Assembly: GCF_021952865.1 (NCBI RefSeq)
Contig: NZ_CP040792.1
Coordinates: 2,418,001-2,482,000 of the forward strand
Length of the DNA: 64,000 bases
From: Clavibacter californiensis
GTDB taxonomy: Bacteria > Actinomycetota > Actinomycetes > Actinomycetales > Microbacteriaceae
Reading direction: 5' to 3'
Part shown: one piece after another, positions 49,456 through 62,087 of the stretch
Position numbering within the stretch: the first letter of the stretch is position 1
Layout of the letters: each line of letters opens with the position of its first letter
The notes under the pieces: model-generated
Database searches by the model: none
The model's input: only the letters and a program-made list of their open reading frames with translations
Told to the model about the DNA's origin: nothing
Program-made: the position numbers and the translations under genes

Positions 49456-51210
49456 ATGGCCGGACGCGCGTTCGCCGACCGGCTCCGCCACCCGCTCTCG
49501 GGCCTCCGGGTGGGACTCCCCCGCGGGATCGCCGCACGCCTCCTGGTCGTCCAGCTCGCGGTCCTGCTCCTCGTCGCGGTCGTCGCCACCGCGGCGCTGT
49601 GGGCGGACTCCCGGCAGCGCGCCGAGCAGGCCGCCGCCGACCGGAGCCTGGCCGTCGCGACGACCGTGGCCGACTCGCCGCGCGTGGCGGAGGGGCTCGC
49701 GTCCGCGGATCCCACGGCGGCCCTCCTCGACTACTCGCTCGACGTGACGCGCGACACCGGGGTCGACTTCGTCACGATCATGGACCGCGACACCGTGCGC
49801 GTGACCCACCCGGACCCGGGCGAGATCGGCCGCAGGTACCTCGGCACCACGGGCCCCGCGCTCGCCGGGCGGTCGATGACCGAGACCTTCACGGGGACGC
49901 TCGGGCCGAGCGTGCGCGCGGTCGTCCCCGTGCGCGACGCGGACGGCGGCATCGTCGGGCTGGTCGCGGCGGGCGTGACCGTCGACCGCGTCACCGAGGT
50001 GCTCGGGGCGCGACTCCCCGGGCTCGTCGGCACGGTCGGGGCGCTCGCGCTGCTCCTCGCGGCGGGGGCCGTGCTCCTCAGCAGGTCCCTGGAACGGACG
50101 ACGTGGGGGCTCGGGCCCGAGGAGATGGCGCGCATGCTCGCCTACTACGAGTCGGTGCTGCACTCGGTCGGCGAGGGCATCGTGCTCGTCGACCGCGACC
50201 GGCGGCTCGTGCTCCACAACGACCAGGCGGCCGAGCTGCTCGACCTCGAGCTGGATCCCGCCACCGGTCCCGTCGAGATACGCGAGCTGGGGCTGCCGCC
50301 CGCGATCGAGCGGCTGCTCGTCGCGGGGACGACGGCCGACGAGGTCGTGCACCTGCCCAGCGGGCGCGTCCTCGTGGTCACGCAGCGGCCGGCGCTGCCC
50401 ACCGGCCGCACCGGGAGCGCCGCGCGGCTGGGGACGGTGACGACGCTGCGGGACCGGACGGAGATCCAGCGCCTCTCGGGCGAGCTCGCGACGCTGCGGA
50501 CCCTCTCGGACGCCATGCGGGCGCAGACCCACGAGTTCGCGAACCGGCTGCACACCATCGTGTCGCTCATCGAGCTGGAGCGGCCGCGCGAGGCGCTCGC
50601 GCTCGCGGCCGCGGAGCTCGAGACGGACAGGCGGGCATCGGAGGGCGGGCTGGCGGCGGACGCGGATCCCGTCGTCCGGGCGCTCGTGCGCGGCAAGACC
50701 GCGCAGGCGGCCGAGCGCGGCGTGGAGCTCTCCGTGCGGGTGGCCGACGGCACGGGCGACCCGGGCGTGCCTGCGACCGAGCTCGTGACGATCGTCGGGA
50801 ACCTCGTCGACAACGCGATCGACGCGGCGGCGGATCCGTCGGTCGCCACGGCGCGCGGGGACGACCGCGGCCGCGTCGAGCTCTCGCTGTCGCGGACCGA
50901 CGCGGGCGGGCTCGTCGTCGAGGTGGCGGACGACGGACCGGGCGTGGATCCCGCGGTGCGGCCGCGCGTGCTGGAGTTCGGGGTCACGACCAAGGCGGGC
51001 GACGCCGGGCCGCGCGGCGTGGGACTCGCGCTCGTGGCCCGCTCGGCCGCACGGCTCGGCGGACGGGTCGAGGTGGGCGACGCGGACGTGCGGCTGGGCG
51101 GGGCGCGCGTGCGCGTCGTGCTGCCCGCGGATCCCGCCGACGCCCCCGGAGAGGACCCGGCCGTCGTGCCCGAGGGCGCCGACGCCCGCGACGGCGGGGT
51201 GCGCGCGTGA
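49456..51210 (+). CDS. CitA/DcuS-type sensor histidine kinase
   Basis: The 584-residue membrane kinase has a first membrane segment near residues 30-52 (LLVVQLAVLLLVAVVATAAL) and an extracytoplasmic PAS-like sensor (about 55-185; VDFVTIMDRDTVRVTHPDP). A second segment follows (VGTVGALALLLAAGAVLL), then a cytoplasmic PAS, and the kinase core with phospho-acceptor QTHEFANRLHTIVSLIE, GNLVDNAIDAA and DDGPGVDPAV. This architecture senses C4-dicarboxylates or citrate. It overlaps the response regulator (GTGA) and is divergent from dctA. ATG 49456 has GAGGGGGC upstream. Confidence 0.92.
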   Translation: MAGRAFADRLRHPLSGLRVGLPRGIAARLLVVQLAVLLLVAVVATAALWADSRQRAEQAAADRSLAVATTVADSPRVAEGLASADPTAALLDYSLDVTRDTGVDFVTIMDRDTVRVTHPDPGEIGRRYLGTTGPALAGRSMTETFTGTLGPSVRAVVPVRDADGGIVGLVAAGVTVDRVTEVLGARLPGLVGTVGALALLLAAGAVLLSRSLERTTWGLGPEEMARMLAYYESVLHSVGEGIVLVDRDRRLVLHNDQAAELLDLELDPATGPVEIRELGLPPAIERLLVAGTTADEVVHLPSGRVLVVTQRPALPTGRTGSAARLGTVTTLRDRTEIQRLSGELATLRTLSDAMRAQTHEFANRLHTIVSLIELERPREALALAAAELETDRRASEGGLAADADPVVRALVRGKTAQAAERGVELSVRVADGTGDPGVPATELVTIVGNLVDNAIDAAADPSVATARGDDRGRVELSLSRTDAGGLVVEVADDGPGVDPAVRPRVLEFGVTTKAGDAGPRGVGLALVARSAARLGGRVEVGDADVRLGGARVRVVLPADPADAPGEDPAVVPEGADARDGGVRA

Positions 51211-51911
51211 TCCGCGTGCTGGTCGTCGACGACGACGTGCTGACCGCGGAAGCCCACTCCCTCTACGTCGGCCGGCTCGACGGCTTCGAGGTGGCGGGCG
51301 TCGCGCACACGGGCGGCGAGGCGCTGCGGCTCGTCGCGGAGGCCGGGACCGACGGAATCGACCTCGTGCTGCTCGACATGACGCTGCCCGACATGCACGG
51401 GCTCGAGGTGTGCCGCAGGCTTCGGGCGGCCGGGCGCGCGACCGACGTCGTGGCCGTGACCGCCGTGCGCGACCAGGCCGTCGTGCGCAGCTCGGTGACC
51501 GCGGGCATCGTGCAGTACCTCATCAAGCCGTTCACGTTCGCGGCGTTCGCGGAGAAGATGGCGGCCTACGTCGGCTACCGCGAGGGGCTCGGGGCGGGCA
51601 GCGGGAGCACCACCCAGCTGCAGGTGGACCGGGCGCTCGCGGCGCTGCGCTCCCCCGCGTCCGACTCCCGCCTGCCGAAGGGCATGTCGGCGGAGACCCT
51701 CGACCTCGTGCGCGGGATCGCGCGGGGCGACGGCGCGACGACCGGCGGCGCGGACGGCGTCTCCGCGGCGGAGGTCTCGGGCGCGCTCGACATGTCGCGC
51801 GTGACGGCACGCCGCTACCTCGAGTACCTCGCCGACGTGGGCCAGGTGGAGCGGGTGCCGCGATACGGGACCCCCGGCCGGCCCGAGCTCGGGTACCGCT
51901 GGACGAGCTGA
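51207..51911 (+). CDS. DcuR/CitB-type response regulator
   Basis: The 234 residues form a receiver domain (RVLVVDDDVLTAEAHSLYV; phospho-acceptor in DLVLLDMTLPDMHGLEVCRR; GIVQYLIKPFTFAAFAEKM). A C-terminal helix-turn-helix follows (GVSAAEVSGALDMSRVTARR, YLEYLADVGQVERVP), typical of CitB/DcuR. The GTG start overlaps the kinase stop by four bases. Its likely target is the dctA promoter. Confidence 0.92.
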   Translation: MIRVLVVDDDVLTAEAHSLYVGRLDGFEVAGVAHTGGEALRLVAEAGTDGIDLVLLDMTLPDMHGLEVCRRLRAAGRATDVVAVTAVRDQAVVRSSVTAGIVQYLIKPFTFAAFAEKMAAYVGYREGLGAGSGSTTQLQVDRALAALRSPASDSRLPKGMSAETLDLVRGIARGDGATTGGADGVSAAEVSGALDMSRVTARRYLEYLADVGQVERVPRYGTPGRPELGYRWTS

Positions 51912-52004: not shown

Positions 52005-53051
52005 ATGAGACGCACCATCCTCCCGCCGTACCTGCTGATCCGCCTCGCCGAGGCCGACCCCGATCGCTTGGCCGCCGCCCGCCAGGCCGCTCGCCGCGCC
52101 CTCCGCGACCAGGGACCGCTCATCCACGACCGCCGCGGTCCGGGTGCGGCGCCGGACGCGTCGGCGCTGGCCGGGCGGGACCCGTCCGGGATCCACCGCA
52201 CCATCTCCGACGCCGGGAACCGCGAGGAGCTGCCCGGCCGCACGGTGCGCGTCGAGGGCGCGCCCGACACGGGCGACGCCCAGGTCGACGAGGCCTACGC
52301 GGGGCTCGGCGCCACCTACTCGCTCTTCTCCGAGGTCTACGGACGGGAGTCGCTCGACGACCGCGGCCTGCCGCTGCTCGCGACCGTGCACTACGGCGAG
52401 GAGTACGACAACGCGTTCTGGGACGGCACGCGCATGGTCTTCGGCGACGGCGACGGCGAGGTGTTCGCGCCGTTCACCCGGTCGCTCACGGTCATCGGGC
52501 ACGAGCTGACGCACGGGGTCACGGAGCTCACGCTCGGCCTCGTCTACCAGGGCCAGTCGGGTGCGCTCAACGAGTCGATCTCCGACGTGTTCGGCGTGCT
52601 CGTGGAGCAGCACGCGCTCGGGCAGACGGCCGACGAGGCCAGCTGGCTCGTCGGCGCGGAGCTGTTCCTCGAGCGGTCGACGGGCCTGGCGCTCCGCTCG
52701 ATGAGCGCGCCCGGCACCGCGTACGACGACGACGTGCTCGGGAAGGACCCGCAGCCCGGCCACATGGACGACTACGTGGAGACCCAGGAGGACAACGGCG
52801 GCGTCCACATCAACTCGGGGATCCCCAACCGCGCGTTCTTCCTCGCCGCCACGGCGATCGGCGGCACGGCCTGGGAGGGCGCGGGCCGCGTCTGGTACGA
52901 CGTGATCGAGTCCGGCGCCGTGCGCGCCGACGCCGACTTCGCGGCGTTCGCCCGCGCCACGATCGACGCGGCGGCGGCGCGGTACGGTGAGGGCGCGTCC
53001 GAGGTCGCCGCGGTCCAGGCGGCGTGGGAGGGCGTCGGGATCGAGGTCTAG
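52005..53051 (+). CDS. M4 metallopeptidase, protealysin type (no signal peptide)
   Basis: The 348 residues have no signal peptide. The N-terminus RTILPPYLLIRLAE is the short protealysin-like propeptide with its Pro-Pro motif. The catalytic domain holds VIGHELTHGVTELTLG (zinc histidines and base), LNESISDVFGV (third ligand glutamate) and the proton-donor region GGVHINSGIPNRAF. Length and motifs fit thermolysin-like intracellular or non-classically secreted proteases. The next gene encodes a candidate emfourin inhibitor of this enzyme, starting at once after its stop. Confidence 0.92.
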   Translation: MRRTILPPYLLIRLAEADPDRLAAARQAARRALRDQGPLIHDRRGPGAAPDASALAGRDPSGIHRTISDAGNREELPGRTVRVEGAPDTGDAQVDEAYAGLGATYSLFSEVYGRESLDDRGLPLLATVHYGEEYDNAFWDGTRMVFGDGDGEVFAPFTRSLTVIGHELTHGVTELTLGLVYQGQSGALNESISDVFGVLVEQHALGQTADEASWLVGAELFLERSTGLALRSMSAPGTAYDDDVLGKDPQPGHMDDYVETQEDNGGVHINSGIPNRAFFLAATAIGGTAWEGAGRVWYDVIESGAVRADADFAAFARATIDAAAARYGEGASEVAAVQAAWEGVGIEV

Positions 53052-53333
53052 GTGGAGATCGCCGTGTCGCGCACGGGCGGGGTGGCGGGCATGACCCGCA
53101 CCTGGTCGGTGCGCGTGGACGACGGCCAGGACGGGGCGGCCGACTGGAGCGCGCTCGTCGACGCATGCCCATGGGACGAGCCCGCCGTGCCGACCCCCGG
53201 CACCGACCGCTTCGTCTACCTCGTGCGCGCGGGCGACCGCGAGGCGCGACTCGGCGAGGCCGCGGTCGACGGCGCGTGGCGTCGGCTCGTCGACCGGGTG
53301 CGCGACGCGTCCCGTGAGAGCCTCGGAGGATGA
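53052..53333 (+). CDS. Emfourin-type protealysin inhibitor
   Basis: The 93-residue protein starts with VSRTGGVAGMTRTWSVRVDD and continues with ADWSALVDACPW and TDRFVYLVRAGDREARLGEA, the pattern of emfourin (M4-peptidase inhibitor) proteins. Emfourin genes are known to pair with protealysin genes and the proteins block the active site. The start is GTG, directly after the protease stop, and the end overlaps the next gene by four bases. It would keep the protease inactive in the cytoplasm. Confidence 0.82.
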   Translation: MEIAVSRTGGVAGMTRTWSVRVDDGQDGAADWSALVDACPWDEPAVPTPGTDRFVYLVRAGDREARLGEAAVDGAWRRLVDRVRDASRESLGG

Positions 53334-54190
53334 CCCCGCCCCCCTCCGCTGACGACCGCTACGGACAGGACGTGCTCGCCCCGGGCTGGCGTGGCCCCGC
53401 GAAGAAGGCCCCGCGGCCGCAGGACGCGACGCGCGACCTCGTGGTCGAGGAGCTGTCGACCGGGTTCTGCGGCGCGATCGTGCGGGTCGAGTCCGGGATG
53501 GTCGTGCTCGAGGACTTCCGCCGGAAGCAGCGCACGTTCCCGCTCGGCGGCTCCTTCCTGCTCGAGGGCGAGCCCGTCGCGCTGCGCGTCCCGCGGGCCG
53601 CGCCCGCCGGACCAGCGCGCACCGCGTCCGGCTCGCTCGCGGTCGCCGACGCCACGGCCCGCGTGGCCCTGCCCAGCCGGATCTTCGTGGAGGGCCGGCA
53701 CGACGCCGAGCTCGTGGAGAAGGTGTGGGGCGAGGACCTCCGGATCGAGGGCGTCGTCGTCGAGTACCTCGAGGGCGTCGACCACCTCGACGAGGAGCTC
53801 GACCGCTTCCGACCGGGCGCGGGCCGCCGGGTCGGCGTGCTCGTCGACCACCTCGTGCCCGGATCCAAGGAGAGCCGGATCGCCGAGGCCGTCGCCCGCG
53901 GGCCGCACCGCGCGCACGCGCTCGTGGTCGGCCACCCGTACGTCGACGTGTGGCAGTCGGTGAAGCCCGGGCGTCTCGGGCTCCGCGAGTGGCCCGTCAT
54001 CCCGCGGAACGTGGAGTGGAAGCACGGCATATGCGCCGCGCTCGGCTGGCCGCACGAGGAGCAGGCGGACATCGCGCGTGCGTGGCAGCGGATCCTCGGG
54101 CAGGTGCGCTCGTACCAGGACCTCGAGCCCGCGCTCCTCGGCCGGGTGGAGCAGCTCATCGACTTCGTGACGGACCCCGCCGGACGCTAG
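53330..54190 (+). CDS. DUF3097 family protein
   Basis: The 286-residue protein matches DUF3097 of actinobacteria: DRYGQDVLAPGWRGPAKKAP at the start, a beta-rich first domain (GFCGAIVRVESGMVVLEDFR), and a Toprim-like second domain (IFVEGRHDAELVEKVWGEDL, then RVGVLVDHLVPGSKESRIAE and HPYVDVWQSVKP). The acidic residues of EGRHDAE and DHLVPGS suggest a metal-binding Toprim fold; function is unknown. The ATG start overlaps the emfourin stop. Confidence 0.85.
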   Translation: MTPPPSADDRYGQDVLAPGWRGPAKKAPRPQDATRDLVVEELSTGFCGAIVRVESGMVVLEDFRRKQRTFPLGGSFLLEGEPVALRVPRAAPAGPARTASGSLAVADATARVALPSRIFVEGRHDAELVEKVWGEDLRIEGVVVEYLEGVDHLDEELDRFRPGAGRRVGVLVDHLVPGSKESRIAEAVARGPHRAHALVVGHPYVDVWQSVKPGRLGLREWPVIPRNVEWKHGICAALGWPHEEQADIARAWQRILGQVRSYQDLEPALLGRVEQLIDFVTDPAGR

Positions 54191-54235: not shown

Positions 54236-55309
54236 TCAGGCGGGTGCCGCCGCCGTGTCGCCCATCCGCACGCGCACCGGCAGCACGACGCTCGCCGGCG
54301 CCCGGCCCGCGAGCAGCTCGCCGACCATGCGCCCGGCGCGCACCCCGCGGTCATGCAGCGGCTGCTCCACGGTCGTGAGCTGGCGCTCGAGCCACGGCAG
54401 GTGCGCGCCGTCGAAGCCCGTGACGGTGAGGTCCTCCGGCACGCGCAGCCCGCGGGCGGCGGCGGCGCGGATCGTGCTCGCGGCGAGCATGTCGTTCTGG
54501 GCGAGGATCGCCGTCGGCCGCGACGGCAGGTCGAGCAGCACGCCGGCGGCACGCTCCCCCGCCTCCAGGTCGCGCCCGCCCGCCTCGACGCGGACGGCGT
54601 CGGGGAAGACGCTCCACGCCGCGCGGAGCCGCTCCCGGATCGTGCGGTTGACGATCTCCTCGAGGTCGCGCCCCACGGGGATCACGGGGCCGGGCGGGCC
54701 GTCCTCCTCGATCCGCGTGGTGCGCATCAGCACGGCGACGTGGCGATGGCCGAGGGCGCGCACGTGGCGCGCGAGCTCGCCCATGCCGCGGGCGTCGTCG
54801 ATGTCGACCACGGCCACGCCCTCCCCGTGCGGCCCCTCGACGCCGACCATGGGGATCCTGCGCGCGCGCAGCCCGGGGAGGAGCGCATCCACCTCCTCGC
54901 CGCGGGTGAGGAAGACCACGGCGTCGACGGGCATGCCCTCGAGCAGCGGCGCGGATCCCTCACGCGGCTCGCGGCGGCCCGGCAGCAGCAGCTGGCCCAC
55001 GTCGAGCTCGTCGAGCGCCTCGCTGAGGCCCGCCATGGTCGCGAGCGCGACCGGGTTCTGGAAGGCGCGGCGGATGCTGCCCGCGACGACGACGCCGACG
55101 ATGCCGGAGCGTCCGCTCTTCAGGGACCTGGCCGTGGGATCCGGCCCCGCGTAGCCGATGCTGGCGGCGGCGCGCAGGATCCGCGCGCGCGTGGCCGGCG
55201 TGATCGAGCCGGTGCTGCGATACGCGAGCGACGCCGTGGAGGTGGAGACGCCCGCGAGAGCGGCCACGTCGGCGAGGGTCACGGAGGTGCGCGGCGAGTT
55301 CCTCCTCAT
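54236..55309 (-). CDS. LacI-family transcriptional regulator of the adjacent ABC/GDPD operon
   Basis: The 357 residues have an N-terminal LacI helix-turn-helix (VTLADVAALAGVSTSTASLA, then TPATRARILRAAASIGY) and a periplasmic-binding-protein-like effector domain (SGIVGVVVAGSIRRAFQNPV; TAILAQNDMLAASTIRAA; VPEDLTVTGFDGAHLPWL). It diverges from the solute-binding-protein operon, 154 bp away, and is most likely its repressor. The ATG start is preceded by TAGGGT at seven bases, a leaderless arrangement. The effector is unknown, presumably the imported compound or its product. Confidence 0.9.
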   Translation of the reverse strand: MRRNSPRTSVTLADVAALAGVSTSTASLAYRSTGSITPATRARILRAAASIGYAGPDPTARSLKSGRSGIVGVVVAGSIRRAFQNPVALATMAGLSEALDELDVGQLLLPGRREPREGSAPLLEGMPVDAVVFLTRGEEVDALLPGLRARRIPMVGVEGPHGEGVAVVDIDDARGMGELARHVRALGHRHVAVLMRTTRIEEDGPPGPVIPVGRDLEEIVNRTIRERLRAAWSVFPDAVRVEAGGRDLEAGERAAGVLLDLPSRPTAILAQNDMLAASTIRAAAARGLRVPEDLTVTGFDGAHLPWLERQLTTVEQPLHDRGVRAGRMVGELLAGRAPASVVLPVRVRMGDTAAAPA

Positions 55310-55316
55310 GCCGCCC

Positions 55317-55322
55317 ACCCTA
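55317..55322 (-). promoter_or_regulatory. Putative -10 element (TAGGGT) of the lacI-type gene
   Basis: On the minus strand TAGGGT is followed by seven bases and ATG at 55309, consistent with leaderless initiation. Confidence 0.45.
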
Positions 55323-55411
55323 TTCACGGCCGGCTCCCCGGCACGCCCGTTCGCCCTCGGGGACCGGGATCGCAACGCCCCGTTCACGTCCGGGCCACCG
55401 GAGGACCACAC

Positions 55412-55436
55412 CATCGAAACGATGCGATCCGCATCG
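55412..55436. promoter_or_regulatory. Candidate LacI-type operator, nested inverted repeats
   Basis: CATCG-AAA-CGATG (55412-55424) and CGATGCG-ATC-CGCATCG (55420-55436) share the central half-site. Three alternating CGATG/CATCG half-sites lie 28-52 bp before the solute-binding protein start, where bound repressor would block transcription. Confidence 0.55.
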
Positions 55437-55463
55437 ATCCCCCAGCAGAAGGACACCCGACAC

Positions 55464-56630
55464 GTGATCCCCCGCCGTTCCCTCCTCGCCCTCGCCGCCG
55501 CCGCGTCCGCCGCGGTCGCGCTCGCGGGCTGCGCTCCCACCACGAGCACGCAGGCCCAGGCCCAGAACCACGCCGTCACCGACGCGTCGGGCACCGCCCG
55601 CGTCTTCATCTCCGGCGACACCAACGTCCAGGCCCTCTGGGACGACGGGATCATCCCCGCGTTCGAGAAGGCGAACCCCGGCGCATCGGTCACCACGACG
55701 CTCGACCTCCACGGCGAGCACGACGCACAGACCATGGCCACGCTCACGAGCTCGGTGCAGGGCGGATCCGACCCCGGCTACGACCTCATCGACGCGGGCT
55801 TCACCGCGGCGGCCGGCACCGGCGGGCTCCTCGCGCCCGTCTCGGCCGACACCATCCCGAACCTCGCGACCGTGCCGGAGACGACCGTGCAGTCCGGCGG
55901 CGGCTTCGGGATCCCCTACCGCGCCTCCTCCGTGCTCCTCGCCTACGACTCCACGAAGGTCCAGTCCCCGCCGAAGACCCTCGCGGACCTGCTCTCCTGG
56001 ATCCAGGCCAACCCCGGCCAGTTCGCCTACAACTCCCCCTCCACCGGCGGATCCGGCCAGGCGTTCGTCACGACCGTCCTCGACACGCACGTCGACGACG
56101 CCACGCGCGAGAAGATGACGACCGGCTACGACCAGTCGCTCGAGAGCGCGTGGGACGCCGGCTTCGACGAGCTCAAGGGGCTGGACCCCGCCATGTACCA
56201 GGGCGGCGTGTACCCCAACGGCAACAACCAGGTGCTCGACCTGCTCGGCACGGGCGCCATCGAGATGGCCCCGGTCTGGAGCGACCAGGTCATCACGGCG
56301 CAGAAGTCGGGCACGCTCCCGTCGACCGTGAAGTACGCGCAGATCTCCGACCCCGCCTTCACGGGCAGCGCGTCCTTCCTCGGCATCCCGAAGACGGCCG
56401 AGCACGCGGACGTCGCGCAGAAGCTGGCCGACTACGTGCTCTCCGCCGAGGGCCAGGCCATCATCGCCAGCACCATCGCGGGCTACCCCGTGATCTCGCT
56501 CGACCAGGTGCCCGATGACCTGAAAGCCCAGTTCGCCTCGGCCGACCCCTCGACGCTCCGCCCCGGCTACTACAGCAAGATGGCGTCGGACATGTCGAAC
56601 CTCTGGGACCAGAAGGTCCCCGGCCAGTGA
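55464..56630 (+). CDS. ABC transporter solute-binding lipoprotein
   Basis: The 388-residue protein begins MIPRRSLLALAAAAS and has a lipobox ending LAGC (lipidated C23). The rest is an extracellular solute-binding protein (ALWDDGIIPAFEKANPGASV; GIPYRASSVLLAYDSTKVQS; FLGIPKTAEHADVAQKLADY) of the Fe3+/thiamine/phosphonate-like group. GTG 55464 gives a proper signal peptide, with AAGGAC upstream; ATG 55422 is in frame but poorly placed. Substrate prediction comes from the enzyme encoded last in the operon. The permease gene overlaps its stop (GTGA). Confidence 0.88.
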   Translation: MIPRRSLLALAAAASAAVALAGCAPTTSTQAQAQNHAVTDASGTARVFISGDTNVQALWDDGIIPAFEKANPGASVTTTLDLHGEHDAQTMATLTSSVQGGSDPGYDLIDAGFTAAAGTGGLLAPVSADTIPNLATVPETTVQSGGGFGIPYRASSVLLAYDSTKVQSPPKTLADLLSWIQANPGQFAYNSPSTGGSGQAFVTTVLDTHVDDATREKMTTGYDQSLESAWDAGFDELKGLDPAMYQGGVYPNGNNQVLDLLGTGAIEMAPVWSDQVITAQKSGTLPSTVKYAQISDPAFTGSASFLGIPKTAEHADVAQKLADYVLSAEGQAIIASTIAGYPVISLDQVPDDLKAQFASADPSTLRPGYYSKMASDMSNLWDQKVPGQ

Positions 56631-57580
56631 CGGCCGTCCGGACGGCGGATCCCGCCGCCCGGGCCGCCAGCGCGCGGCGGGTCTCCCCGGAGACCCGCCG
56701 CGCCGGCGTCGGCCTGGCTCTCGCCCTCCCGCCCGCGCTCCTGCTCGCGTTCTTCGTCGGGATCCCCGTCGTCCTCGCGATCGGCTTCAGCCTCGGCCAC
56801 ACGGGCGGGCTCAACAGCACCATCGCCACGATCGGCCTCGGCACGCGCACCGCCACGAGCTGGTGGGGCACGCTCGACGCCTACGTCGACGTGTTCACCG
56901 ACCCGCGGTTCCTCCGCGACCTCGGCGTCACGGTGCTCGTGACGGTGATCTCCACCGCGATCGTGATCGCCCTGTCGCTCGCGATCGCGCTCAACCTGCG
57001 CCTCCGCGGCGGCCGCCTCGCGTCGGTGTTCGCGGGGCTCGCGATCGTCCCGCTCTTCATCCCCGTCGTCATCGCGTCGTGGGCGATCCTCACCTTCTAC
57101 TCGGGCGACGGCTTCGTCCGCACGGTCTTCGCGCTCGTCGGCCTCGAGGGGCCGACCTGGGGCTACACGACGGTGGCGGTGGTCATCGGATCCGTGTGGA
57201 CGAGCCTCCCGTTCGCCACGCTCATGGCGACCTCCGGCGTGCAGGGCATCCCCGACGCCATGATCGAGGCCGCACGCGACGCGGGCGCCTCGACCTGGGC
57301 CATCGTCACGCGGGTGCTCGTGCCGCTCGCCGCGATCCCGCTCGTCATCGCCACGACCTTCACGGCGATCGGCGTGCTCGGCTCCTTCACGGTGCCGTAC
57401 TTCACCGGCCCCAACGCGCCCAGCATGCTCGGCGTCGACATCTCGAAGTACTTCACGGGCTTCAACCACCCGCAGCAGTCGATCGTGATGGCCGTCGTGG
57501 TGTTCGTGCTCGCGTCCGGCATCGCGTTCCTCTACGTGCGGGCCAACTTCCGCTCCGCGAAGAAGGAGGGCCGGGTCTGA
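56627..57580 (+). CDS. ABC transporter permease 1
   Basis: The 317-residue protein has about six membrane segments, starting with LALALPPALLLAFFVGIPVV. It carries the EAA-type cytoplasmic loop (AMIEAARDAGASTWAIVTRV) that contacts the ATPase. It is of the MalF/PotB-like permease family. The GTG start overlaps the solute-binding protein stop, and its stop overlaps the next start by one base. Confidence 0.92.
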   Translation: MTAVRTADPAARAASARRVSPETRRAGVGLALALPPALLLAFFVGIPVVLAIGFSLGHTGGLNSTIATIGLGTRTATSWWGTLDAYVDVFTDPRFLRDLGVTVLVTVISTAIVIALSLAIALNLRLRGGRLASVFAGLAIVPLFIPVVIASWAILTFYSGDGFVRTVFALVGLEGPTWGYTTVAVVIGSVWTSLPFATLMATSGVQGIPDAMIEAARDAGASTWAIVTRVLVPLAAIPLVIATTFTAIGVLGSFTVPYFTGPNAPSMLGVDISKYFTGFNHPQQSIVMAVVVFVLASGIAFLYVRANFRSAKKEGRV

Positions 57581-58395
57581 TGCGTGCCCTCCTCTCCGCC
57601 CGCGGCTGGATCCAGGCCGCGCTGTTCGCGGTCGTCGCGGTGTTCATCCTCGGCCCGCTGCTCTGGCTCGCGGCGCACGCGTTCGCGACGAGCTGGGACT
57701 ACCCGAGCCTCGTGCCCGCCGGCCTGACGCTCGACTGGTGGCGCGTGGTGCTCGAGGACGCCGAGCTCGCCGCGGCCGTCCGCAACTCGCTGTACTTCGC
57801 GCCCATCACGGTGCTCGTCTCGGCGCTCGTCTGCCTGCCGGCCGCGTACGCGTTCTCCCGGTTCCAGTTCCCCGGCCGGCGGATCCTGCTGGTGGGCCTC
57901 TTCGCCACCAACGCGTTCCCCAAGATGGGGCTCTTCGTGTCGATGGCGTCGCTGTTCTACGGGCTGCACCTCATGAACACGGTCACGGGCATCGTCATCG
58001 TGCAGCTGATCGGCACGGTCGTGTTCATGACCTGGATCCCGGCCGCCGCGTTCAGCGCCGTGCCGCGCTCCCTCGAGGAGGCCGCGCGCGACGCGGGCGC
58101 AGGACGCGTGCGGACCTTCCTGCACGTGACCCTGCCGCTCGCGCTGCCCGGGATCCTCGTGGCCGTGCTCATGTCGTTCCTCGCCGCGTTCGACGAGGCG
58201 CAGGGCACGTACCTCGTGGGCGCGCCCGTCTACATGACGATGCCGACCGAGATGTACTCGCTCGTCCTCAACCACCCGAAGCAGGTCGCCGCCGTGTTCG
58301 CGATCCTCCTCTCCGTCCCCTCCGTCGCCCTCCTCCTGCTCGCCCGCCGCCACATCATGGGCGGGCGTCTGGCCGAGGGCTTCCAGATCCGTTAG
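57580..58395 (+). CDS. ABC transporter permease 2
   Basis: The 271-residue protein has about six membrane segments (first AALFAVVAVFILGPLLWLAA) and the ATPase-contact loop LEEAARDAGAGRVRTFLHV. It pairs with the preceding permease to form the channel. Stop and start share one base (TGATG). Confidence 0.92.
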   Translation: MRALLSARGWIQAALFAVVAVFILGPLLWLAAHAFATSWDYPSLVPAGLTLDWWRVVLEDAELAAAVRNSLYFAPITVLVSALVCLPAAYAFSRFQFPGRRILLVGLFATNAFPKMGLFVSMASLFYGLHLMNTVTGIVIVQLIGTVVFMTWIPAAAFSAVPRSLEEAARDAGAGRVRTFLHVTLPLALPGILVAVLMSFLAAFDEAQGTYLVGAPVYMTMPTEMYSLVLNHPKQVAAVFAILLSVPSVALLLLARRHIMGGRLAEGFQIR

Positions 58396-58402
58396 GCCGG
58401 TC

Positions 58403-59554
58403 ATGACCGCATCCGCCCCCACCTCCCCCACCGCCGCTCTCCCGCGCGCGCACGACGACGGCACCGGGACCGCCGCGCCGTCCGGCCTCGTCGTCGCCGG
58501 GCTCTCCAAGGACCTCGGCGGCCGCACCATCGTCGACGACCTCCACCTCGACGTCGCGCGCGGCGAGCTCGTCGCGCTCCTCGGCCCGTCCGGCTGCGGC
58601 AAGACCACCACGCTCCGCATGATCGCCGGGTTCCTCGAGCCCGACCGCGGATCCGTGGTCATCGGCGGCCGCGACGTCACCGCCGCCGGCCCCGCCAAGC
58701 GGCCGAGCGCGATGGTGTTCCAGAACTACGCGCTCTGGCCGCACCTCACCGTGTTCAAGAACGTCGCCTTCCCGCTCACGCTGAAGAAGCTGTCCAAGGA
58801 CGAGATCACCCGTCGGGTCATGGCCGCGCTCGAGACCGTGAACCTCGGGCACCACGCCCACTCGCGCCCCACGCAGGTCTCCGGCGGCGAGCAGCAGCGC
58901 GCGGCGCTCGCCCGGGCGATCGTGCAGGAGCCCGACCTGCTGCTCCTCGACGAGCCGCTGTCGAACCTCGACGCCAAGCTGCGCGTGAAGGTGCGCGAGG
59001 AGATCCGCGACATCCAGCAGCGGCTGCGGATCACGACCGTCATGGTCACGCACGACCAGGACGAGGCGCTCGCCATCTCCGACCGCGTCGCCGTGATGCA
59101 CCAGGGCCGCATCGAGCAGGTGTCGGCCCCCACGGAGCTCTACGCCCGGCCGCGGACCCTCGTGGTCGCGTCGTTCATCGGCAGCATGAACCTGCTGCCG
59201 ACGCCGCGCCTGCAGGGCACGACGCCCGAGACCCTCACAGCCGGCCCGCCCGTGGCGTTCGCGCCCACCTCCGCCGACGCCGACGTCTGGGCCGTCCGCC
59301 CCGAGGACGTGACCTACGCGCCGCGCGGGATCCGGCCCGAGACCGACGCGACCTCCGTGGTCGTGCGCCGGGTGCTGCCGCACGGCCACTTCCAGGAGCT
59401 CGTCCTGGACGCGGGCGGCGTGGAGGTGCGCGCGCTCGTGACCGCATCCGCGCCCGCGGTCGGCGAGGCCGGCACCGTGACGCTCCGCGCGGTGCGGCAC
59501 TACCGCGGCGGGGTCCTGGTGCCGGACGGCGCCACGGCGGGCGACGCGCGATGA
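58403..59554 (+). CDS. ABC transporter ATP-binding protein
   Basis: The 383-residue ATPase has Walker A LGPSGCGKTTTLRMIAG, Q-loop VFQNYALWPHLTVF, signature VSGGEQQRAALARAIV, Walker B LLLLDEPLSNLDAKL and the switch histidine in VMVTHDQDEAL. A C-terminal TOBE-like regulatory domain follows (VWAVRPEDVTYAPRGIRPET). It energises the upstream permeases. Its last four bases overlap the start of the GDPD-IMPase gene, which indicates coupled expression. Confidence 0.94.
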   Translation: MTASAPTSPTAALPRAHDDGTGTAAPSGLVVAGLSKDLGGRTIVDDLHLDVARGELVALLGPSGCGKTTTLRMIAGFLEPDRGSVVIGGRDVTAAGPAKRPSAMVFQNYALWPHLTVFKNVAFPLTLKKLSKDEITRRVMAALETVNLGHHAHSRPTQVSGGEQQRAALARAIVQEPDLLLLDEPLSNLDAKLRVKVREEIRDIQQRLRITTVMVTHDQDEALAISDRVAVMHQGRIEQVSAPTELYARPRTLVVASFIGSMNLLPTPRLQGTTPETLTAGPPVAFAPTSADADVWAVRPEDVTYAPRGIRPETDATSVVVRRVLPHGHFQELVLDAGGVEVRALVTASAPAVGEAGTVTLRAVRHYRGGVLVPDGATAGDAR

Positions 59555-61128
59555 CGGCCGCGACCGCCCACCGCGGCGACTCCTCCCGGCAGCGCGAGAA
59601 CACGCTGGCGGCCATCCTCTCGGCGGCTGAGGCCGGTGCCCGGACGGTCGAGGTCGACGTGCACGTCACGCGCGACGGCCAGGTCGTCCTCCTCCACGAC
59701 GACACCCTCGAGCGCCTGTGGGGCGTCGACGCGCGCGTCGCGGACCTCGACCTCGCCGACGTGCGCGCGCTCGGCGGCGGGGAACTCCGCATCCCGCTCC
59801 TCGCCGAGGCGCTCGAGCTCCTGGCGGGCACGGACGTCGAGCTCGTGATCGACATGGCGTCCGGGGATCCGGCCGCCGCCGCGCACGCGGTCGTCCGGGC
59901 CGCCCCGCGCACGCCGCGGGTGGCCTGGTGCGGGCACCTCGACGGCATGCGCGTGATCCGCGAGCTCGACCCCGCGGCCGCCATCTGGCTGCCGTGGGCC
60001 GACCCCCAGCCGCCCACCGCGGACGATCTCGCGGAGCTCCGGCCCGCCGTCGTCAACATGCCGCACCTCCTCGTCGGCCGCGCGCTCGTGGACGCCGTGC
60101 ACGCGCTCGGCGCGGGCGTCACCTGCTGGACCGTGGACGAGCCCGCCCAGATGGAGTGGCTGGCGTCGATCGGCGTCGACGCGATCACCACGAACGAGCT
60201 GGCGACGCTCCTCGACGTGCTCGCGCGCCGGGAGGCCGACCCCGCCGCCGCGGACGCCCGCGCGACCGCGCCCGCCGCGGAGCGGACCCGCGCCCGTGCC
60301 GCGGCGCGCGACCTCGCGGGGCGGGCGGTCCACCACGTCCGCTCGCACGAGGTCGGGGCCGTGACGACGAAGGCGAACCCCGCCGACCACGTGACGGAGA
60401 TCGACCGGGCCGTCGAGCGCGACGTGCGCGCGGTCGTCGGGGCGCAGTTCCCGCACCACGTGCTCGTCGGCGAGGAGTACGGCGGCGAGGCCGTGCCCGG
60501 CCGCCCGTGCTGGTACCTCGACCCCGTCGACGGCACCGCGAACCTCGCCAACGGCGTGCCGTGGACGAGCTTCTCGCTCGCCCTCGTGGTCGACAGCGAG
60601 CCCGTCGTGGGCGTCGTGGCGGATCCCTGGCGCGGCACGGTCGTCGAGGCCGCCGCGGGCGAGGGCGCCTGGTCCGCCGGCGCGCGCCTCGACCTGCGGG
60701 CGACGCCGGGCGGCGTCCACGTGCCCGACGCGGATCCCCTCCGCGGCCGCATGGTGAGCACCGAGCTCGCGGGGCACGCGCCGTGGCCGGGGATGCTGCC
60801 GCTGCTCGACGCGCTCGCCGCGCGGTACTGCACGCTGCGGATCATGGGGTCGGGCACGCTCACGGTCGCGGGCATCGCGCTCGGCCACGGCGCGGGCGCG
60901 GTGATCGGCGCGTTCGGCCCCGTCGACCACCTCGCGGCGACGCTCATCGTGCGCGAGGCAGGCGGCGTCGTGCTCGACGCGGAAGGCGAGGACACGCTGT
61001 TCCCGGTGTCGGGCGGCGTGCTCGCGGCCCGCGACCCGGAGACCGCACGGGCCCTGCACGCGCTCTGGCGCGCCGGGATCGTCGAGGCGACCTCCGCCGC
61101 GCTGCCGACGCGCGCTCCGGCCGCCTAG
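59551..61128 (+). CDS. Fused glycerophosphodiester phosphodiesterase - inositol monophosphatase
   Basis: The 525 residues join two enzymes. Residues about 5-235 form a GDPD TIM barrel: HRG at 7-9, ENT at 16-18, metal residues E34 and D36, catalytic H49 in LLHDDTLER, and VTCWTVDEPAQMEWLASIGV. The usual late E-x-K pair is D101-M-A103. Residues about 250-515 form an IMPase-like Mg phosphatase: E308 and E309 in VGEEYGG, DPVDGTANLANG from D324, and D459 in GPVDHLAATLIVREAGG. All phosphatase metal ligands are present. The expected route is diester cleavage, then phosphate removal, for example glycerophosphoinositol to inositol. Start and stop overlap both neighbours by four bases. Confidence 0.9.
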   Translation: MTAATAHRGDSSRQRENTLAAILSAAEAGARTVEVDVHVTRDGQVVLLHDDTLERLWGVDARVADLDLADVRALGGGELRIPLLAEALELLAGTDVELVIDMASGDPAAAAHAVVRAAPRTPRVAWCGHLDGMRVIRELDPAAAIWLPWADPQPPTADDLAELRPAVVNMPHLLVGRALVDAVHALGAGVTCWTVDEPAQMEWLASIGVDAITTNELATLLDVLARREADPAAADARATAPAAERTRARAAARDLAGRAVHHVRSHEVGAVTTKANPADHVTEIDRAVERDVRAVVGAQFPHHVLVGEEYGGEAVPGRPCWYLDPVDGTANLANGVPWTSFSLALVVDSEPVVGVVADPWRGTVVEAAAGEGAWSAGARLDLRATPGGVHVPDADPLRGRMVSTELAGHAPWPGMLPLLDALAARYCTLRIMGSGTLTVAGIALGHGAGAVIGAFGPVDHLAATLIVREAGGVVLDAEGEDTLFPVSGGVLAARDPETARALHALWRAGIVEATSAALPTRAPAA

Positions 61129-62087
61129 CCCGCGTCGCGGTCCGCGCGCGCGTCGAGCAGCGCGCGGACCCGGCCGGGCCCGACGACGCGTGCGCCGAGC
61201 GCCTCGACGCGGGCGACGAGACCGCGGTCGGCCGTGACCACCAGGACCTCGCGCCCGGCGTCGCGCGCCGCGCCGACGACGCGCACGATCTCGCCGTCGC
61301 CGTCGCCGTCGGCTGGCGCGGCGACCACCGCGACACCGGGCGCGCGGAGCGTGGGCGACGCGGCAGCCGCGGCGGGCTCCGCCGGGAGCGACGCGTCGCG
61401 CGCGTCCCCCTCCACGACCGCCACGACGTCGGGCCAGCGCACGGCGCCCGGCAGGTCGAGCGCCGCGGCGGGCAGGCCGTCGCGCGCGAGCGCGTCGAGC
61501 GCGGCGAGGAGGCGGGCGGTGGATCCGGCGCGGTCGCGCCACCAGCCGTCCGGCCGGGAGCCGAGCAGGTTGGCGGTGTCGACGACCAGCGTGACCTCGC
61601 GCGCGAGCTCTCCGTGCAGCATGGGCCAGGCGCGGCCGAAGCCCGGGTGCAGCTCGAGCCCGTCGACCTCGACCACGGGCACCCAGCGCAGCTCGATGCT
61701 CTCGGCGTCCGCGACGCGGGGCTCGAACGGGCGGATGGTGCGCGCCGTGACGGTCGTGTAGCTCCAGAAGCCGAGGTCGAGCACGGTCGCCAGCACGGGG
61801 CGGATCCCCGCGGGCGGCACCCCCGCCTCCTCGGCGGCCTCGCGCGCGGCGCCGTCCACGGCGGACTCGCCCGCGTGACGTGCGCCGCCGGGCAGGCCCC
61901 ACGTGCCGCCATGGTGGCTCCATGCGACCCGGTGCTGGAGCAGGACGCCGCGATCCGGGTCGTGCACGAGCAGCCCGGCGGCGCCGAACGCGCCCCAGAA
62001 CCGCTGGCCCTCGGGGCTCTCGACCCATGCGTCGCCGCTGTCGCGATGCGCCCCGCGCGGGAGCTCGGGCGGGCGGTCGGCGGTCAT
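61125..62087 (-). CDS. NUDIX hydrolase fused to NYN/PIN-like domain
   Basis: Residues about 30-180 of 320 form a NUDIX domain: GLPGGARHAGESAVDGAARE then AAEEAG, the GX5EX7REUXEEXG box in slightly altered form, and WVPVVEVDGLELHPGF. After residue about 185 the sequence LVVDTANLLGSRPDGWWRDR starts a PIN/NYN-like ribonuclease domain that ends LVVTADRGLVARVEALGARV. The second domain has conserved acidic residues (D of VVDTAN, D of TADRG). NUDIX enzymes cleave nucleoside diphosphates linked to other groups; the pairing suggests RNA or nucleotide turnover. The stop shares CTAG with the fusion enzyme gene (tail-to-tail). Confidence 0.82.
   Translation of the reverse strand: MTADRPPELPRGAHRDSGDAWVESPEGQRFWGAFGAAGLLVHDPDRGVLLQHRVAWSHHGGTWGLPGGARHAGESAVDGAAREAAEEAGVPPAGIRPVLATVLDLGFWSYTTVTARTIRPFEPRVADAESIELRWVPVVEVDGLELHPGFGRAWPMLHGELAREVTLVVDTANLLGSRPDGWWRDRAGSTARLLAALDALARDGLPAAALDLPGAVRWPDVVAVVEGDARDASLPAEPAAAAASPTLRAPGVAVVAAPADGDGDGEIVRVVGAARDAGREVLVVTADRGLVARVEALGARVVGPGRVRALLDARADRDAG

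What the first reader, a model, noticed from the sequence alone, without database searches (positions are those of the whole stretch)
54236..61128. Predicted glycerophosphodiester uptake and two-step hydrolysis locus with a GDPD-IMPase fusion
A LacI-type regulator diverges from an operon encoding a lipoprotein solute-binding protein, two permeases, an ABC ATPase and one polypeptide that fuses a glycerophosphodiester phosphodiesterase to an inositol-monophosphatase-like domain. Seen: all genes overlap or nearly touch. Known: GDPD enzymes cleave glycerophosphodiesters; IMPases remove phosphate from inositol phosphates and related polyols. Inferred: the imported substrate is a glycerophosphodiester such as glycerophosphoinositol, cut to a phosphomonoester and then dephosphorylated in the same protein, releasing usable polyol and phosphate. 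I am not aware of a described system of this layout, and it would suit a plant-associated bacterium scavenging host phospholipid products.
Basis: partly seen in the sequence, partly recalled or inferred. Interest (0 to 1): 0.85.

Follow-up and report, generated by a model that had tools for sequence, protein, structure and literature searches.

The report
Phosphodiester importer with two-step enzyme
A bacterium of the Clavibacter group carries a self-regulated gene set that probably imports a small phosphate-bridged sugar or polyol compound and then cuts it and removes the phosphate with one fused enzyme, by the same logic as the known agrocinopine system of Agrobacterium but with different parts.

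Summary
The locus is real. A divergent LacI regulator faces a tightly overlapping operon: lipoprotein SBP, two permeases, ATPase, and one protein joining a GDPD to an IMPase-family domain. In 40 related actinobacterial loci, 38 keep the fusion in one frame and 37 have all four transporter genes directly upstream; Microlunatus has the two enzymes as neighbouring separate genes. A 16-bp operator lies in the intergenic gap, is unique in the genome at one mismatch, and occurs in all 18 relatives with this LacI. Some distant transporter relatives (6 of 10 looked at) also sit beside a GDPD and/or IMPase. Import followed by two-step hydrolysis of a phosphodiester is therefore well supported by comparison, though nothing has been assayed. 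Glycerophosphoinositol as the substrate is not established: the residue that marks inositol-1-phosphate specificity (Glu213 of human IMPase) is Ile or Val in 36 of 36 aligned. A few relatives carry IolE/IolG-like genes nearby, so inositol is not excluded. The layout has a published precedent: the Agrobacterium acc (agrocinopine) operon has importer + GDPD-family AccF + IMPase-like AccG. This is a new variant of a known kind, not an orthologue of acc. Plant association is not specific.

The parts
54236..55309 (-). LacI-family transcriptional regulator, 357 aa, divergent from the operon
   Evidence: Pfam PF00356 and PF13377; homologues of 59-98% identity in 18 of 40 related loci
55369..55384 (+). 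weak second operator-like site (3 mismatches)
   Evidence: at 3 mismatches such matches are expected by chance in the window (mean 3.45), so weak on its own; a second intact site lies in the same gap of several relatives
55413..55428 (+). predicted LacI operator ATCGAAACGATGCGAT
   Evidence: only match in the own genome at up to 1 mismatch; pattern present in all 18 LacI-bearing loci and in none of the 22 other loci of the 40
55464..56630 (+). lipoprotein solute-binding protein, SBP_bac_8 family, 388 aa
   Evidence: Pfam; lipobox LAGC by eye; AlphaFold2 mean pLDDT 84.8, residues 1-38 under 50; fold of sugar and sugar-phosphate binders
56627..57580 (+). ABC permease 1
   Evidence: PF00528
57580..58395 (+). 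ABC permease 2
   Evidence: PF00528; 43% identity to the Rhizobium permease of an IMPase-linked transporter
58403..59554 (+). ABC ATPase
   Evidence: PF00005; best NCBIfam PhnT2 345.7 bits, below its cut-off 457.7
59551..61128 (+). bifunctional protein: GDPD domain (about residues 1-229), helical linker, IMPase-family domain (about 243-515); no signal peptide seen by eye
   Evidence: Pfam; model pLDDT 91.0; structural matches; catalytic residues

Best explanation
This is a locally regulated nutrient-scavenging operon for a small, polar phosphodiester. The lipoprotein SBP and the two-permease, one-ATPase importer bring the intact diester into the cell. There the GDPD domain cuts the diester to an alcohol plus a phosphomonoester, and the fused IMPase-family domain removes the phosphate. 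Polyol or sugar and phosphate become available, and no awkward sugar- or polyol-phosphate builds up. The LacI protein represses only this operon through the operator in the shared intergenic gap, and probably senses the diester or one of its products. It works like the agrocinopine (Acc) system without being an orthologue of it. Shown by sequence: operon, domains, intact catalytic residues, conserved gene linkage, unique operator-like site. Inferred: transport direction and ligand class, the order of the two hydrolyses, repression. Open: the exact substrate. A glycosyl or polyol phosphodiester whose cleavage leaves a monoester other than the plain sn-glycerol-3-phosphate that cells already use seems most likely, because the dedicated glycerophosphodiester operon ugp carries no phosphatase gene.
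For: Fusion in one frame in 38 of 40 related loci, and full transporter directly upstream in 37 of 40, plus 1 cut by the contig end. Microlunatus L069 has separate GDPD and IMPase genes at the same place, and its IMPase falls in the same fully supported clade. Distant transporter homologues lie beside a GDPD in Deinococcus and Enterococcus, GDPD plus IMPase in Rhizobium WL3, Ketogulonicigenium and Alloyangia, and IMPase in Sinorhizobium. GDPD residues H7, R8, E16, N17, E34, D36, H49 are 36 of 36; IMPase D324, D327, G328, T329, D459 are 36 of 36 and E308 is 35 of 36. Of 4 fusions seen without a transporter, 2 have lost catalytic residues (Sinomonas L056 at E308; L124 at His7 and Asp101) and 2 have not (L122, L123). 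The operator-like site is unique and tracks LacI in 18 of 18. SBP Arg153 of the PYR motif is kept in all GDPD/IMPase-linked SBPs aligned and lost in L102, L103 and YnjB. Precedent for the logic: PMC4526662.
Confidence: 0.7

Rival explanations
1. Glycerophosphoinositol (or another inositol phosphodiester) system: the diester is cut to inositol-1-phosphate or inositol, and inositol feeds the iol pathway.
For: IolE-like genes adjoin the operon in 3 of 40 loci (L043, L052, L058), with IolG-like and CehA/McbA genes in L052 and L058. Gfo/Idh/MocA and sugar-phosphate isomerase genes lie near the transporter relatives L081, L103 and L104. The own genome has iolG (373.1 bits, cut-off 355) and iolD (817.2 bits, cut-off 715) elsewhere.
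Against: The IMPase position equal to human Glu213 is Ile in 27 and Val in 9 of 36; PMC2080633 (one passage) gives Glu or Gln there for inositol-1-phosphate-specific enzymes. The IolE-like proteins score 142-145 bits, far below the TIGR04379 cut-off 290. In 37 of 40 loci no such neighbour was found in the sequence held; 12 of the 40 loci are shorter than 21 kb, so some flanks are short.
Confidence: 0.2
2. Ugp-like general glycerophosphodiester scavenging (glycerophosphocholine, -ethanolamine, -glycerol), with the IMPase domain removing phosphate from sn-glycerol-3-phosphate to give glycerol.
Against: The UgpB model is not among the NCBIfam matches of this SBP at E <= 0.001; ugp has no phosphatase; the fused domain is conserved in 38 of 40 loci, so dephosphorylation seems to be needed.
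Confidence: 0.2
3. Agrocinopine-like sugar phosphodiester (sugar-2-phosphate or related) made by plants, microbes or cell-wall polymers.
For: Same enzyme pair as AccF/AccG; AccG also lacks the Glu at position 213, having Ser; PMC4526662 reports that AccF cleavage leaves an unusual sugar-2-phosphate.
Against: AccF and AccG are only family-level relatives (40% over 94 aa; 31% over 213 aa); importer and regulator classes differ; no synthase for such a compound was sought.
Confidence: 0.3
4. An iron, thiamine or polyamine importer that happens to lie next to an unrelated enzyme.
For: Best PDB sequence matches of the SBP include ferric-binding HitA (E 1.5e-8); NCBIfam gives weak thiamine-SBP and polyamine-transporter matches below cut-off.
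Against: The region NNYYWYT of HitA, which I recall as holding the iron tyrosines, aligns to PVWSDQ with no Tyr; linkage to the fusion in 37 of 40 loci and to GDPD/IMPase in other phyla.
Confidence: 0.05

Closest known systems
acc operon (agrocinopine catabolism) of Agrobacterium pTiC58
   Same: regulator, SBP, two permeases, ABC ATPase function, a GDPD-family phosphodiesterase (AccF) and an IMPase-family (putative) phosphatase (AccG) in one operon; import then diester then monoester hydrolysis (PMC4526662, abstract and passages)
   Different: AccF and AccG are separate proteins; two ATPases, one annotated as oligopeptide/dipeptide type; the regulator is DeoR/GlpR; AccF/AccG are only distant relatives; the IMPase domains do not group with AccG, whose branch is long
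Rhizobium WL3 / Ketogulonicigenium / Alloyangia SBP-permease-ATPase-GDPD with IMPase
   Same: same transporter family (SBP 30-33% identity) and same enzyme pair at the same place
   Different: enzymes not fused; the WL3 GDPD is hardly alignable; IMPases keep Glu at position 213 and form another clade
Deinococcus aetherius and Enterococcus casseliflavus GDPD transporters
   Same: same transporter family next to a GDPD that also has Asp in place of the third Glu
   Different: no IMPase in the gene table shown; a CehA/McbA metallohydrolase instead
E. coli ugpBAECQ
   Same: ABC importer with a terminal GDPD
   Different: other SBP class, no phosphatase, GDPD with IEIK
AfuABC sugar-phosphate importer
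   Different: ligands are sugar monophosphates; no GDPD mentioned in the passages read
Xanthosan system XanT-XanP of Xanthomonas
   Same: uptake and hydrolysis of a sugar phosphodiester as nutrient (PMC12807533, outline and passages)
   Different: TonB-dependent transporter and 2H-phosphoesterase; other protein families

Membership tests
GDPD family (PF03009) | Pfam match and catalytic His/Arg, Glu-Asn, Glu-x-Asp, His-Asp | tested here: met
   (1.9e-37); H7 R8 E16 N17 E34 D36 H49 D50 36 of 36
GDPD family, UgpQ/AccF-like motif IE(I/L)K | third Glu and Lys two residues later (metal role recalled, not from a call) | tested here: not met
   D101 in 36 of 36; Lys absent (A 6, D 26, E 2, T 2); UgpQ and AccF have E..K
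IMPase family (PF00459) | Pfam match; metal ligands Glu70, Asp90, Asp93, Asp220 (human numbering, PMC4954947 passages) | tested here: met
   E308 35/36, D324, D327, D459 36/36
inositol-1-phosphate-specific IMPase | Glu or Gln at human position 213 (PMC2080633, one passage) | tested here: not met
   Ile 27, Val 9 of 36
HisN histidinol phosphatase | NCBIfam TIGR02067 above cut-off | tested here: not met
   99.1 bits against 275.15
acc operon | GDPD-family plus IMPase-family enzymes in an importer operon | tested here: met
acc operon | importer with two ATPases (one annotated oligopeptide/dipeptide type) and DeoR/GlpR regulator | tested here: not met
acc operon | orthology of AccF/AccG | tested here: not met
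   40% over 94 aa, 31% over 213 aa; AccG outside the clade in the tree, on a long branch; no tree was made for AccF
acc operon | pyranose-2-phosphate ligand | not testable with these tools
   needs binding and enzyme assays
Ugp importer | UgpB-type SBP | tested here: not met
   PRK10974 not among NCBIfam matches of the SBP at E <= 0.001
Fbp/Hit ferric importer | Tyr pair for Fe3+ (role recalled) | tested here: not met
   HitA YYW region aligns to VWSDQ
2-aminoethylphosphonate PhnSTUV/PhnT2-U2 | NCBIfam equivalogs above cut-off | tested here: not met
   PhnT2 345.7 of 457.7; PhnU2 61.8 of 593.25; PhnS 25.0 of 395.3 bits
YnjBCD | PRK11622 above cut-off | tested here: not met
   101.3 of 203 bits; 20% identity to YnjB

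The most novel reading that the evidence does not exclude
The operon represents an undescribed, widespread class of dedicated phosphodiester importers, seen here in Actinomycetota, Deinococcota, Bacillota and Alphaproteobacteria. Each is coupled to a GDPD with Asp in place of the third Glu and to an exchangeable phosphatase (IMPase or, perhaps, CehA/McbA). These would feed on a common but unrecognised glycosyl or polyol phosphodiester, so that an agrocinopine-like phosphodiester diet exists far beyond Agrobacterium and crown galls.
Probability: 0.35. Interest if true: 0.72.

Novelty: new variant of a known kind. Interest (0 to 1): 0.48.

Why it matters
Fusing the two hydrolytic steps in one protein, encoded with its own importer and a local repressor, gives a direct handle on an unknown nutrient. 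It points a family of transporters now annotated only as 'extracellular solute-binding protein' or resembling iron/2-AEP systems towards phosphodiester uptake, and shows that the enzyme logic known from agrocinopine catabolism occurs, with other parts, in many bacteria outside Agrobacterium.
Full report
OBSERVATION. The window lies in an unnamed 3.24 Mb genome. The fusion's nearest relatives are Clavibacter (83-94% identity), and 6 other genomes listed as the same genus have it. Junctions overlap by 4, 1 and 4 bases, with one gap of 7 bases. A convergent NUDIX gene (61125-62087) follows.

CONSERVATION. A scan of genome contigs gave 50 loci. Ten (L070-L079, nine titled Streptomyces and one Actinacidiphila) match the GDPD part only. 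Of the other 40 (L030-L069), 38 have both domains in one frame; this counts L061, cut by the contig end, and L063, whose IMPase part is broken into two frames. The exceptions are L069 (Microlunatus: two neighbouring genes) and L067 (IMPase part only; 373 N in the locus). All four transporter genes lie directly upstream in 37 of 40; the SBP is cut off by the contig start in L049; none is found in L056 and L067. Among 299 genomes of the family, 24 match at E <= 1e-30, one of them (G244) by the GDPD part only. Three of these fusions have no transporter gene of this type within the 20-kb stretches read (L122-L124). Of the four fusions thus seen without a transporter (L056, L122-L124), two have lost catalytic residues, L056 at E308 and L124 at His7 and Asp101, and two have all those checked. 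This fits a job that depends on uptake, but the number is small.

REGULATION. The 154-bp gap between LacI and SBP holds ATCGAAACGATGCGAT at 55413-55428. With up to one mismatch it is the only such site in the genome. The related pattern is in all 18 loci that carry this LacI (59-98% identity) and in none of the 22 others of the 40. The pattern was built from these same gaps, so the 18 of 18 is partly by construction; the uniqueness in the genome is not. I infer a dedicated single-operon repressor. Loci without this LacI (Arthrobacter, Cryobacterium and others) may use another regulator; this was not followed.

WHAT IT WORKS LIKE. The acc operon of pTiC58 has the same logic: importer, GDPD-family AccF and IMPase-family AccG. 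Membership fails: importer class, regulator class and, as far as tested, enzyme lineage differ. The fusion and the SBP_bac_8-type importer make this a variant. The xanthosan system (PMC12807533, outline and passages) shows that phosphodiester nutrition exists elsewhere, with other protein families.

SUBSTRATE. For inositol: iolG and iolD of the own genome are above cut-off, an IolE-like gene adjoins iolG, and three of 40 operon loci have IolE-like neighbours. Against: residue 213, IolE-like scores at half of the cut-off, and 37 of 40 loci in which no such neighbour was found, 12 of the 40 being held with short flanks. For plain glycerophosphodiesters: the GDPD family and the Ugp precedent; against: the conserved phosphatase. 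I cannot decide, and leave the ligand class as glycosyl or polyol phosphodiester.

VERDICT. Real, conserved and probably a two-step phosphodiester scavenging system (0.7); new variant of a known kind; glycerophosphoinositol only one candidate (0.2).

Noticed in passing
61125-62087 (-): A 320-aa protein whose NUDIX domain covers only residues 36-145; the rest has no Pfam match. The acc operon of pTiC58 also carries a NUDIX gene right after accG; possibly coincidence, as this NUDIX gene was found beside the fusion only in the Clavibacter-group loci among the 79 searched.
   Followed up: no
52005-53051 (+), 53330-54190 (+): A protein that looks like a thermolysin-type metalloprotease (from its sequence, recalled motif, not searched) and a DUF3097 protein. 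DUF3097 is also near the transporter-less fusions L122-L124.
   Followed up: partly
49456-51911 (+): A sensor kinase and response regulator pair that looks like the DcuS/CitA type (sequence only, recalled).
   Followed up: no
L052 12449-21518 and L058 11519-19996: Downstream of the operon: MgtC-like gene, IolE-like, IolG-like, a second sugar-type ABC importer and a CehA/McbA protein.
   Followed up: partly
L117 (own genome, C1:1180000-1199999): IolG above cut-off and IolE-like gene beside frames that resemble triose-phosphate isomerase, dihydroxyacetone kinase and a GntR regulator (read by eye).
   Followed up: no
L080, L082: A Rhizobium IMPase convergent to the transporter sits at the end of a cluster with phosphotriesterase, BtpA/SgcQ, TenA and ribokinase genes; in L082 a LacI regulator stands at its start.
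   Followed up: no
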